64,000 nucleotides of DNA from Deltaproteobacteria bacterium (lineage in GTDB: Bacteria > Bdellovibrionota > JACOXK01), in contig JACPKQ010000024.1 in the NCBI GenBank assembly GCA_016186995.1, positions 1 through 64,000 on the forward strand, read 5' to 3'. A program made the translations under genes and the position numbers. Shown here in pieces: positions 6,841 through 63,866 of this stretch. The notes beneath the pieces are model-generated. The model saw only the letters and a list, made by a program, of their open reading frames with translations, did no database searches and was not told the origin of the DNA. How positions within the stretch are numbered: position 1 is the first letter of the stretch; each line of letters starts with the position of its first letter.

Positions 6841-6880
6841 CCATTTTCTCATTTTTAAGAATAAATATATTATCTTCTCA

Positions 6881-6963
6881 GTTCTTGATGGACTGGAGGT
6901 TTTGAAGGGGAGGATCCACACTGGGCGGAGGGGCCCCTGAGGAACCTCCAGGTCATCAAGAAC
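6881..6963. repeat. Palindromic element, family D, copy 1
   Basis: Arms at 6881-6899 and 6945-6963 pair with one G-T wobble and one mismatch (left arm GTTCTTGATGGACTGGAGG). The core contains GGATCC and GGGGCCCC. The same core recurs at 55484-55554 and, truncated, at 32514-32556. It lies in the 330-bp gap between the TonB-like gene and the subtilase. Confidence 0.85.
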
Positions 6964-6993
6964 TTAAGGTTGTTGAAGGATTTTTGAACATGA

Positions 6994-32229: not shown

Positions 32230-32465
32230 GTTCTTGAAATGGCCACAAAAGATAGGGATAGTACTTCCCTCGATATATTACATCGGTGGGGCTGTATTTC
32301 TCAAAAACACGCTATCAAAATTCCCTGCGAGAATTTTGCGCTCTCTCTCGGCCGACGCTCTTTTTTACTTCGTAAAAAATCCATGCCCGCTTTGGCCTGC
32401 GAGAAGGTTTTTTTGAAACACAGTCCCACCTCTTTATATCTTTTGCCCTATACTCTCAGAACCAA
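32230..32465. repeat. Large composite palindromic block
   Basis: The left end GTTCTTGAAATGGCC...AAAAGATAGGG and the right end (as its complement GTTCTGAGAGTATAGGGC, AAAAGATA) are imperfect inverted repeats of each other. Inside are smaller hairpins: CAAAATTC/GAGAATTTTG (32306-32328) and TTTTTTAC/GTAAAAAA. No SD-linked gene is seen here; two short open frames across it are ignored. Confidence 0.7.
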
Positions 32466-32513: not shown

Positions 32514-32556
32514 TTCGAGTTTATGTGAAGATGGCCTGGAGGTTTTGAAGGGGATG
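32514..32556 (+). repeat. Palindromic element, family D, truncated copy
   Basis: Shares TTCGAGT-TATGT-AAGATGGCC and then TGGAGGTTTTGAAGGGGA with the left half of the copy at 55430-55597. The right half is missing. Confidence 0.75.
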
Positions 32557-32635
32557 ATATGAGTGAGTTTATTGAATAACATACTGATATTATTAAATTT
32601 TTTTAATTTCTGGAGTATTTAAATAGACTCAAGAA

Positions 32636-38819: not shown

Positions 38820-38837
38820 AAACAAGAACCAAAAGTG

Positions 38838-38860
38838 TGGGCCCAGGAGGACTTGAACCT
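38838..38860 (-). pseudogene. 3' fragment of tRNA(CAT)
   Basis: 23 nt identical to the T-arm and acceptor end of the tRNA at 39074-39147. The shared block is 29 nt (38832-38860 = 39068-39096). Beyond it the T-stem partner is changed (GTAGG instead of GGAGG) and the rest of the tRNA is absent. Confidence 0.85.
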
Positions 38861-38897
38861 ACGGAGCCGTCTTCCTTTGAATCTATATAATAGATAC

Positions 38898-38946
38898 TTG
38901 ATCTTAGCAAGAATGCGAGCGAACGCAGCATTCGAGCTTAGATCAA
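38898..38946. repeat. Nested palindrome between tRNA fragment and tRNA (1)
   Basis: TTGATCTTAGC pairs with GCTTAGATCAA (one mismatch), enclosing GAATGC/GCATTC with GAGCGAACGCA in the loop. The inner AATGCGAGC motif also occurs in the hairpin at 63789-63841. Confidence 0.75.
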
Positions 38947-38956
38947 TAGGCGGAGA

Positions 38957-39012
38957 CTCTTTTCATTTTAATGAGAACGAGCCTAAAAGGCGAAGTTCGA
39001 ATTAGAAAAGAG
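38957..39012. repeat. Nested palindrome between tRNA fragment and tRNA (2)
   Basis: CTCTTTTC (38957-38964) pairs with GAAAAGAG (39005-39012), enclosing a GAAC/GTTC and GCC/GGC hairpin. Confidence 0.7.
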
Positions 39013-39073
39013 GGTATGAGATGTCTGTTTGAATATGAGGAATAGTCGCGCTGGGCGCGGTATGAGGAAAGTG

Positions 39074-39147
39074 TGGGCCCAGGAGGACTTGAACCTCCGA
39101 CCAACCGGTTATGAGCCGGTAGCTCTAACCAACTGAGCTATGGGCCC
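39074..39147 (-). tRNA. tRNA with CAT anticodon (Met or Ile2)
   Basis: Full cloverleaf on the minus strand: acceptor GGGCCCA/TGGGCCC, D-loop AGTTGGTTAGA, anticodon stem ACCGG/CCGGT with loop CTCATAA, and T-arm GGAGGTTCAAGTCCTCC. CCA is not encoded (CAC follows the discriminator A). It is not an initiator tRNA; elongator Met or lysidine-modified Ile2 cannot be separated by eye. Confidence 0.93.
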
Positions 39148-55429: not shown

Positions 55430-55597
55430 GTGTTCAAAAAGTCTGAATTTTTTCTTAACGAATTAAGTTCGAGTGTATGTAAAGATGGCCTGGAGGTTTT
55501 GAAGGGGAGGATCCACACCGGGCGGAGGGGCCCCTGAGAGACCTCCAGGCCATCAAGAACATAAAGTTGTTAGAAAAAATTCACACTTTTTGAACAC
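55430..55597. repeat. Palindromic element, family D, full-length copy
   Basis: 168 bp of nested inverted repeats. The outer arms (GTGTTCAAAAAGT at 55430-55442, complement near 55585-55597) extend with few mismatches to GTTC/GAAC. The inner arms GATGGCCTGGAGGT (55484-55497) and ACCTCCAGGCCATC (55541-55554) are perfect. The core contains GGATCC and GGGGCCCC as in copy 1. Confidence 0.88.
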
Positions 55598-61173: not shown

Positions 61174-61250
61174 AAAGCCAACACTGCGCTCTGCTCGTGT
61201 TGGCACTATTTGAAAATGCCCATTGCAAGACAATGGGCGATATAGGTCTC
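61174..61250. repeat. 77-bp direct repeat with tRNA-Val 3' end, copy 1
   Basis: Identical by eye to 61351-61427. It contains hairpins GCCAACAC/GTGTTGGC and GCCCATTG/CAATGGGC and ends in the last 17 nt of tRNA-Val (TGGGCGATATAGGTCTC). Confidence 0.9.
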
Positions 61251-61294
61251 CTCTCATGTCAAAAACTGCTTCGCATTTTTTGCATTCGAGCCCG

Positions 61295-61339
61295 GGCCTC
61301 CTGAACCACCAGCATAGCTGGTACCGGTTCAGTCCGGCC
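61295..61339. repeat. Hairpin element between the direct repeats
   Basis: CTGAACC/GGTTCAG enclosing ACCAGC/GCTGGT, flanked by GGCC/GGCC. Confidence 0.75.
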
Positions 61340-61350
61340 TTCTCGACCTT

Positions 61351-61427
61351 AAAGCCAACACTGCGCTCTGCTCGTGTTGGCACTATTTGAAAATGCCCAT
61401 TGCAAGACAATGGGCGATATAGGTCTC
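61351..61427. repeat. 77-bp direct repeat overlapping tRNA-Val, copy 2
   Basis: Same sequence as 61174-61250; its right end is the 3' end of the intact tRNA-Val gene. Confidence 0.9.
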
Positions 61428-61482: not shown

Positions 61483-61604
61483 AAAACTAACCTCTTCCTA
61501 ATAACAAATGAGCCTTTCCCCAGTTTGAAGGGATCCCGGACGTTCGGCTAAAGCCTCTTCCGGGACTCGCTCTTTTGTGCTTGGCATTGCACAAAATAGC
61601 TTCG

Positions 61605-61616
61605 GCTAATCGCCCA
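61605..61616 (-). pseudogene. 5' fragment of tRNA-Val
   Basis: GCTAATCGCCCA copies the 5' acceptor and start of the D-arm of tRNA-Val (61471-61483), next to hairpins GATCCCGG/CCGGGA-type (61531-61564) and TTTTGTGC/GCACAAAA (61572-61596). Confidence 0.6.
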
Positions 61617-63405: not shown

Positions 63406-63588
63406 AAAAATATAATTGAAGCAAGGAACACACCCATTTTTTTGTACAAAAAATCAAATGATGTCAAAGACATAGCAATGTGGAGAGCTGGATTGACTGA
63501 CAAAAATTGTCAGTTACATCGTAAATCGACAAATACAGTGAGCCATTCATGAGCTCTATTATATTATTGATTTTAAAAAAAAAGAGTG

Positions 63589-63661
<73 letters not shown>

Positions 63662-63740
63662 ACTTGTGTATTCAACTAACTCATCAGTGATAATTTTTCA
63701 AAACTTTCTTTTTTTCTAGCTCAGCCTTCCAGGCTTACCG

Positions 63741-63779
63741 CTTTCTGTAAAGCTCGAACAAGTTCTCGCTAACAGAAAG
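63741..63779. repeat. Palindromic element upstream of tRNA-Phe (1)
   Basis: CTTTCTGT/ACAGAAAG enclosing GCTCGAAC/GTTCTCGC. Confidence 0.7.
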
Positions 63780-63788
63780 TCTCCAGCT

Positions 63789-63841
63789 GCTCATCTAAAA
63801 TTCAAATGCTGAGCTCTGCTCGCATTCTCATTAAGATGAGC
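63789..63841. repeat. Palindromic element upstream of tRNA-Phe (2)
   Basis: GCTCATCT (63789-63796) pairs with AGATGAGC (63834-63841), enclosing AATGC ... GCATT with a GAGCTC core. Confidence 0.75.
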
Positions 63842-63852
63842 TACGCTTCCGT

Positions 63853-63866
63853 GCTACCGGGCCACT
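63853..63866 (-). pseudogene. 5' fragment of tRNA-Phe
   Basis: GCTACCGGGCCACT is identical to the 5' end of the intact tRNA and its first flanking bases (63651-63664). It is followed on the tRNA strand by a 13-nt insertion that repeats GTAGC. Confidence 0.75.

What the first reader, a model, noticed from the sequence alone, without database searches (positions are those of the whole stretch)
63651..63866. tRNA-Phe 5' end copied about 200 bp upstream, fused to hairpins
The 14-nt match GCTACCGGGCCACT is followed by a short internal duplication and two palindromes; one shares the AATGCGAGC motif with the palindrome by tRNA(CAT). All three tRNA genes in the window show the same architecture, so palindromes and tRNA fragments seem linked by a mechanism (tRNA-targeting insertion, or tRNA-derived repeats). 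I do not recognise this as a named system.
Basis: partly seen in the sequence, partly recalled or inferred. Interest (0 to 1): 0.65.

Follow-up and report, generated by a model that had tools for sequence, protein, structure and literature searches.

The report
Tiny structured inserts inside tRNA genes
The tRNA fragment marks one of a family of roughly 100-200 base, gene-free, strongly folded inserts that have repeatedly landed in the same arms of many tRNA genes in this bacterial lineage while leaving a working tRNA behind; what moves them is unknown.

Summary
The tRNA-Phe 5' end is copied 202 bp upstream around a folded insert. In the window's genome 10 of 34 tRNAs carry a copy of their own end nearby (0.15 expected); a sister genus has 8 of 30, a control genome 0 of 31. 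The inserts are gene-free, about 100-200 bp, in three structured families. E1 sits at Phe and Met, E2 at the 5' side of Val, E3 at the 3' side of Val. Junctions are fixed: after nt 11 (D-arm), at nt 50-52 (T-arm, E1) or nt 55-57 (T-loop, E3). The duplicated stretch always reaches the mature tRNA end, so a tRNA survives. E3 occurs in 14 of 192 relatives (Bdellovibrionota by matched records), nearly always just behind a tRNA or tmRNA. Its fold shows strong covariation, and one stem pairs an internal 'guide' with the displaced fragment of that tRNA. Related cores occur at different tRNAs with changed guides. No Rfam family matches and no integrase was found beside the loci checked. Several carriers, including a complete one, lack a reverse transcriptase. 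I read this as a small non-autonomous mobile element aimed at tRNA arms by base pairing; the enzyme is unknown.

The parts
63588..63661 (-). intact tRNA-Phe(GAA)
   Evidence: ARAGORN and Rfam
63853..63866 (-). copied 5' end of tRNA-Phe (tRNA nt 1-11 plus 3 leader bases); duplicate of 63651-63664
   Evidence: exact match
63731..63852 (-). E1 insert at tRNA-Phe; precise end ACGG at 63852, joined after tRNA nt 11 (GTAGC|)
   Evidence: RNA model R2, 97.4 bits; Phe is one of the 8 sequences in the model
63789..63841 (-).
63741..63779 (-). E1 hairpin 2
63717..63724 (-). candidate E1 guide CTGAGCTA, complementary to the uninterrupted target TAGC|TCAG across the insertion point
   Evidence: 8 nt, 0.6% of shuffles reach 8
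39073..39147 (-). intact tRNA-Met(CAT)
38832..38860 (-). copied 3' end of tRNA-Met (from nt 51, to 6 bases past N73); 29-nt duplicate of 39068-39096
38861..39067 (+). E1 insert at tRNA-Met, reverse orientation relative to the tRNA, precise end ACGG at 38861
   Evidence: RNA model R2 at 38890-39022, 118.3 bits
61410..61483 (-). intact tRNA-Val(CAC)
61605..61616 (-). copied 5' end of tRNA-Val (12 nt, ends GATTAGC)
61516..61604 (-). E2 insert on the 5' side of tRNA-Val (CGAAG-hairpin-CGAGTCC-hairpin)
   Evidence: RNA model R1, 101 bits
61174..61250 (-). outer copy of a 77-nt exact direct repeat: tRNA-Val 3' end from nt 56/57 (61234-61250), fold-back and hairpin M
61351..61427 (-). inner copy of the 77-nt repeat, overlapping the intact tRNA-Val 3' end
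61241..61351 (-). E3: guide (61340-61350), three-way-junction core, displaced T-arm strand
   Evidence: RNA model R3, 103.9 bits; fold; covariation
61354..61381 (-). hairpin M (GCCAACACGAGCAGAGCGCAGTGTTGGC), same GCGAGC-like motif as E1 hairpin 1
   Evidence: sequence
61395..61415 (-). fold-back GCCCATTG-TCTTG-CAATGGGC pairing the tRNA-Val 3' end with the start of the insert
   Evidence: sequence

Best explanation
The reported feature is one copy of a group of small (about 100-200 bp), non-coding, strongly structured, non-autonomous mobile elements that insert into the D-arm or T-arm of tRNA genes. Shown: each insert lies between an intact tRNA and a direct duplicate of that tRNA's own end. 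The junction with the tRNA is at a fixed position (nt 11|12, about 50|51, or 55-57). The duplicate reaches at least the mature tRNA end, so the gene is regenerated. The fold of E1 and E3 is kept by compensatory changes. E3 contains a segment complementary to the T-arm of its own host tRNA that forms a closing stem with the displaced fragment, and related cores sit at different tRNAs with altered segments. Inferred: the complementary segment aims the element at a tRNA arm by base pairing while the element is single-stranded (folded DNA or RNA; G-U exceeds A-C pairing on the tRNA strand), a trans-acting enzyme opens one strand at the paired arm and the other near the tRNA end, and repair duplicates the tRNA terminus. 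tRNA genes are a safe harbour because a regenerated gene and a spacer removed by tRNA processing cost the host little. The enzyme is not identified; a resident RVT_1 reverse transcriptase is unlikely.
For: Fragments: 10/34 tRNAs (G000) and 8/30 (G001) against 0.15 and 0.03 expected; control genome G011 0/31. Fixed junctions: in 22 E3 loci the repeat starts at nt 55-58 in 21 (20 at 55-57); in 7 E1 loci at nt 50-52 in 6; over 29 loci it ends -1 to +8 nt around N73 in 25 and never earlier. E3, found by structure model alone in other families of the phylum, lies directly behind a tRNA in 25 of 30 loci, plus one at tmRNA and one behind an initiator-Met-like gene that ARAGORN missed. E3 fold: 34 of 39 pairs with compensatory changes, 87% of cells paired, 0/500 shuffles reach it, slid controls 37-42%; E1 22 of 33 pairs. 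Guide: mean 9.9-nt complement to own tRNA vs 5.1 to others, p 3e-13. Retargeting: cores 92% identical at Trp and Gly of G001, 84% at two Arg tRNAs of G034, 86% at Ser of G003 and Leu of G004. Empty sites: tRNA-Leu(gag) of G005 and G006 lacks the insert present in congener G007; the Gly-Tyr-Thr-Trp cluster has 12-21 bp gaps in G000, 209-212 bp E3-filled gaps in G001. G-U 16 vs A-C 3 in E3 core pairs on the tRNA strand.
Against: No mobilising protein was found and movement was not observed. The guide match could be produced by the insertion (a fold-back copy of the target) or kept by selection in place, rather than cause targeting. E1 guides are clear in only 3-4 of 11 copies, and E2 has none that I could see. 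Repeat lengths vary (12 to over 100 nt), which no known transposase explains; the longest include tandem second units (L258). In G007 the sequence beyond the fragment is not syntenic with G005/G006, so the empty site is exact only on the upstream side.
Confidence: 0.55

Rival explanations
1. Micro-islands of a tyrosine integrase acting in trans: the element carries an attP with the tRNA end, recombines at the D- or T-loop, regenerates the tRNA and leaves a displaced fragment.
For: Architecture (regenerated tDNA plus displaced fragment) is that of tDNA islands (PMC4383910). In several loci (L236, L237, L247, L249, L259) the displaced copy keeps the encoded CCA while the intact copy lacks it. 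An integrase gene lies next to one locus (tRNA-Ser of G001).
Against: Islands carry an integrase and their size peaks at 13.6 and 39.9 kbp; these inserts are 100-200 bp with no integrase. G000 has one intact Xer-like recombinase and one broken one. An attP-borne tRNA end would not match each new tRNA, yet near-identical cores sit at different tRNAs, each with its own duplicated end. Flanking genes tested show no integrase. Duplicates can run 24-59 nt past the tRNA.
Confidence: 0.15
2. SINE-like retrotransposition: the structured RNA is reverse-transcribed at a nick in the tRNA gene, giving variable target-site duplications.
For: One precise end and one variable end; duplications of variable length; strand-specific G-U pairing; short structured RNA.
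Against: No RVT_1 reverse transcriptase in G000, G002 (100% complete, 5 E3 copies), G003 or G112. The only RT of G001 is a diversity-generating retroelement with Avd. No poly-A or other shared tail at the variable end.
Confidence: 0.1
3. Host-only mechanism: stalled replication at tRNA genes and template switching copies hairpin modules next to tRNA ends; no dedicated enzyme.
For: Perfect inverted repeats growing out of tRNA 3' ends (L241, L243, L249, L254, L260); mosaic E1 modules; no RT or Y1 transposase in G000; one tandem second unit (L258).
Against: Junctions at the same nucleotide in unrelated tRNAs; deep covariation and a kept guide:fragment stem; presence only in some lineages.
Confidence: 0.13
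4. REP-like elements moved by a RAYT/Y1 HUH transposase: palindromes with GTAG/GGAG feet, inserted after GTAG of the D-arm.
For: GTAG precedes E1/E2 at D-arms and GGAG lies between E1 hairpins; Y1 proteins exist in G001.
Against: No Y1_Tnp in G000; G001 Y1 genes are not flanked by E1 or E3; T-arm copies lack the tag at the junction; REPs are 20-40 bp (PMC3733652).
Confidence: 0.04
5. The inserts are functional non-coding RNAs or processing signals of tRNA operons, kept by selection, not mobile.
For: Strong structural conservation; pairing with the host tRNA.
Against: Sporadic presence: different tRNAs in each genome, empty orthologous sites, at least 5 near-identical E1 copies in G001 far from tRNAs.
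Confidence: 0.03

Closest known systems
Genomic islands in tRNA/tmRNA genes (tyrosine-integrase islands; Islander, PMC4383910)
   Same: target is a tDNA; regenerated gene plus displaced own fragment; T-loop crossover; tmRNA also hit
   Different: 100-200 bp, no integrase, same core at many tRNAs each with its own duplicated end, covarying stem made with the fragment
REP / BIME / MITE-type palindromic repeats (PMC3733652)
   Same: small, non-coding, structured, multicopy; modules recombine; some E1 copies lie free in intergenic DNA
   Different: junctions in tRNA arms with duplicated tRNA ends; 100-200 bp; no Y1 transposase in the genome
Mitochondrial double-hairpin / repetitive hairpin-forming elements (PMC2800124)
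   Same: mobile hairpin elements that can sit in structural RNA genes
   Different: mitochondrial, usually one or two hairpins, and I know of no regenerated tRNA or target-matched guide (knowledge, not tested)
Casposons (PMC10359463)
   Same: target-site duplication; tRNA-Leu sites among targets
   Different: carry Cas1 and PolB, 14-bp duplications, terminal inverted repeats
Group II introns, IS110 bridge RNAs
   Same: works-like comparison only: insertion aimed by base pairing of an element segment with the target
   Different: no RT in several carriers, far too short, target duplicated; IS110 transposases not searched; no Rfam hit

Membership tests
tDNA genomic island | displaced fragment of the same tDNA plus regenerated gene | tested here: met
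tDNA genomic island | integrase gene inside the island | tested here: not met
   inserts of 100-200 bp are too short to hold one; one intact Xer-like recombinase and one broken one in G000; tested neighbours not integrases
SINE / target-primed retrotransposon | resident reverse transcriptase to act in trans | tested here: not met
   none in G000, G002, G003, G112; MAG incompleteness applies except G002 (100%)
SINE / target-primed retrotransposon | variable target-site duplication with one fixed junction | tested here: met
REP/RAYT | Y1 (TnpA-REP) transposase in the genome | tested here: not met
   0 in G000
REP/RAYT | 20-40 bp palindrome with GTAG/CGTC tag | tested here: not met
   100-200 bp multi-hairpin units; tag absent at T-arm junctions
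Casposon | fixed 14-16 bp target duplication and Cas1-solo | tested here: not met
   duplications 12-77 nt or more; Cas1 not searched, inserts too short to encode it
Known RNA family (Rfam 15) | match at or near gathering score | tested here: not met
   only tRNA, RNase P RNA and weak tRNA-antisense or chance hits
IS110 bridge-RNA element | DEDD transposase and bridge RNA | not tested

The most novel reading that the evidence does not exclude
A new class of bacterial mobile element: a protein-free, folded RNA or single-stranded DNA that is programmed by base pairing to tRNA/tmRNA arms, rebuilds the tRNA it enters, and is re-aimed to new tRNAs by changing a short guide, moved by an as yet unknown non-RT enzyme.
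Probability: 0.3. Interest if true: 0.92.

Novelty: new variant of a known kind. Interest (0 to 1): 0.74.

Why it matters
tRNA genes are the classic landing site of large integrase-driven islands. Here the landing is done by elements a hundred times smaller, without genes, whose fold includes a stem built with the host tRNA's own sequence. If the guide directs insertion, this would be a natural, easily re-aimed insertion system. Even if not, it is an apparently undescribed structured family with very strong covariation, and a clean model for how selfish sequence stays harmless by rebuilding its target.

Tried and rejected
A degenerate E2 pattern in IMG/VR gave about the number of hits expected by chance, so it was dropped. 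Phage and plasmid BLAST found only tRNA genes or nothing; the E3 pattern is absent from viral contigs. The idea that the G001 reverse transcriptase (RT plus Avd) moves the elements was rejected: it is an ordinary DGR with VR/TR repeats. A RAYT link was rejected. Hammerhead, HDV and group I/II resemblance was considered by eye and not supported by Rfam. Coincidence was rejected. Copying the guide de novo from the target at insertion is disfavoured: in the G001 Trp/Gly and G034 Arg pairs the inner half of the guide is inherited and mismatched while the outer half fits the new tRNA. Paper searches found no description of such elements, but the library is open access only.

Full report
Check of the observation. 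The 14-nt match lies at 63651-63664 and 63853-63866, the internal GTAGC duplication and both hairpins are as described, and AATGCGAGC is shared with the element by tRNA-Met. The window's three tRNAs all carry copied ends: Phe its 5' end, Met its 3' end, Val both.

Genome survey. The genome (1.68 Mb, 93% complete) has 34 tRNAs by Rfam. Searching each tRNA against its own 500-bp flanks gave a strict pattern. 5' copies are always nt 1 to 11/12, upstream, same strand, 129-140 bp away (202 for Phe). 3' copies always run from the T-arm to the tRNA end, downstream, about 160-212 bp away. Ten of 34 tRNAs qualify; each tRNA against the flanks of the others predicts 0.15. The nearest relative (G001, same family, other genus) has 8 of 30, at mostly different tRNAs (tRNA-Phe is hit at its 3' end there, at its 5' end here), and a closed genome of the same phylum has 0 of 31. 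tRNA-Sec (L218) also has an insert.

The inserts. E1 (Phe, Met, Leu, Ser, Arg-acg, Asp, second Ala, Sec; in G001 Leu, Ala, Phe) starts with ACGGA and folds into two long hairpins; 22 of 33 pairs show compensatory changes. E2 (Arg-tct, Val, His, Gln, Ala) is a D-arm family, CGAAG-hairpin-CGAGTCC-hairpin. E3 (Val and Ser-gga here; Met, Gly, Tyr, Trp, Ser in G001) is a three-way junction. E1 was found only in this family, in 192 relatives; E2 in these two genomes plus one weak hit; E3 in 14 of 192 genomes. That E3 pattern hit no other taxon that the E3 model confirmed.

E3 as an independent test. The E3 model was built from G000 and G001 copies. Of 30 loci examined with it, mostly from other genomes, 25 lie 42-254 bp behind a tRNA on the same strand, one behind tmRNA and one behind an initiator-Met-like gene that ARAGORN missed (my reading). 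Two others are still followed by a tRNA-like 3' end although no tRNA gene was found near. Most are followed by a copy of the same tRNA's 3' end and preceded by a segment complementary to that tRNA's T-arm: mean run 9.9 nt to own, 5.1 to others, p 3e-13. Over 31 sequences the fold, including the stem between segment and displaced fragment, has 87.4% of cells paired against 67% shuffled and about 40% slid, with 34 of 39 pairs compensated. The alignment was fitted to the model, which leans counts towards the core, but the guide stem was not part of the model. G-U pairs outnumber A-C mismatches 16 to 3 in the core on the tRNA strand, so the tRNA strand is probably the one that folds.

Geometry. 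In 22 E3 loci the direct repeat starts at tRNA nt 55-57 in 20 (one at 58, one at 60); in 7 E1 T-arm loci at 50-52 in six; it ends within -1 to +8 nt of N73 in 25 of 29, never earlier. D-arm repeats end at nt 11 and begin at or up to about 6 nt before the tRNA. The lower bound is what selection for a working tRNA would impose; the crowding at the mature end is unexplained and may only reflect short duplications. The longest repeats include fold-back and hairpin M (Val: 77 nt) or a second E3 unit (L258).

Insertion. tRNA-Leu(gag) of two species of one genus ends in CCA followed by a common downstream sequence, while a third species has E3 between an intact copy lacking CCA and a displaced copy keeping CCA. 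The Gly-Tyr-Thr-Trp cluster has 12-21 bp gaps here and 209-212 bp gaps filled with E3 in G001; in G053 E3 sits between Tyr and Gly of a Thr-Tyr-Gly-Thr-tuf operon. Cores at different tRNAs are nearest relatives: Trp/Gly 92%, Arg-ccg/Arg-tct 84%, Ser/Leu across genera 86%. In the Trp/Gly and Arg/Arg pairs the inner half of the guide is inherited and the outer half fits the new tRNA, which argues for adaptation of an inherited guide rather than fresh copying (my reading).

Mechanism. The data fit a folded single strand paired with a tRNA arm and inserted at the paired position with duplication of the tRNA end. No enzyme is shown. Reverse transcriptase is absent from four carriers of at least 92% completeness, including a complete genome, Y1 transposase from this genome, and integrases are absent beside the loci tested. 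E1 copies carry a target-spanning complement of 8-9 nt in three of eleven cases (0.6% of shuffles reach 8) and 7 nt in a fourth, which hints at a shared principle but does not prove it.

Known systems. The architecture is that of tDNA islands (PMC4383910) at about one hundredth of their size and without integrase. The closest kind by size is the REP/MITE group (PMC3733652), but neither tRNA-arm targeting nor the tRNA-paired stem is described there in what I read. No Rfam family matches. I therefore call it a new variant of a known kind, with a real chance that it is a new kind.

Noticed in passing
window 55430-55597 (also 6871-6974 and 32514-32558): 88-nt repeat GATGGCCTGGAGGTTTTGAAGGGG...CCTCCAGGCCATC; the 55.4-kb copy is enclosed by a 41-nt inverted repeat: another palindromic repeat family not near tRNAs.
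   Followed up: no
L215, L217, L219, L223, L225 (genome G001): At least five near-identical E1 copies far from tRNAs, each with a T-arm-like left end GGTTTTTGATTCGAAAACCG and right end AAGGCAGGTTTT: E1 can also spread as a free repeat.
   Followed up: partly
L224 (G000:C21:59436-59531): Half an E1 with the tRNA-Leu(tag) 3' fragment attached, 5 kb from tRNA-Leu: the fragment can travel with the insert, or a tRNA copy was lost.
   Followed up: no
L243, L254, L260, L241, L249: Perfect inverted repeats growing out of the tRNA 3' end (up to about 45 bp) before the E3 guide.
   Followed up: partly
L258: Tandem second E3 unit, exact over 50 nt up to the contig end.
   Followed up: no
L271 (same site as L252): E3 directly behind the tmRNA gene: tmRNA T-arm is also a target.
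   Followed up: partly
L198 (G001:C139): Diversity-generating retroelement: RT, Avd, TR and a formylglycine-type variable repeat.
   Followed up: yes
G000:C1:10001-10427 (L205, L207): Tyrosine recombinase gene broken by a stop/frameshift, the only second one in the genome.
   Followed up: no
L016 and L024 upstream of tRNA-Gly(ccc) and tRNA-Ser(gga): A further shared repeat near tRNAs (ACCTTGGTTCTGAATTGGGG / CTCATGAACA), not E1-E3.
   Followed up: no
window 32294-32369: Weak E3-model match (16 bits), no tRNA near; probably chance or a decayed copy.
   Followed up: no
window 6499 (-): Third AATGCGAGC in the window, away from tRNAs.
   Followed up: no
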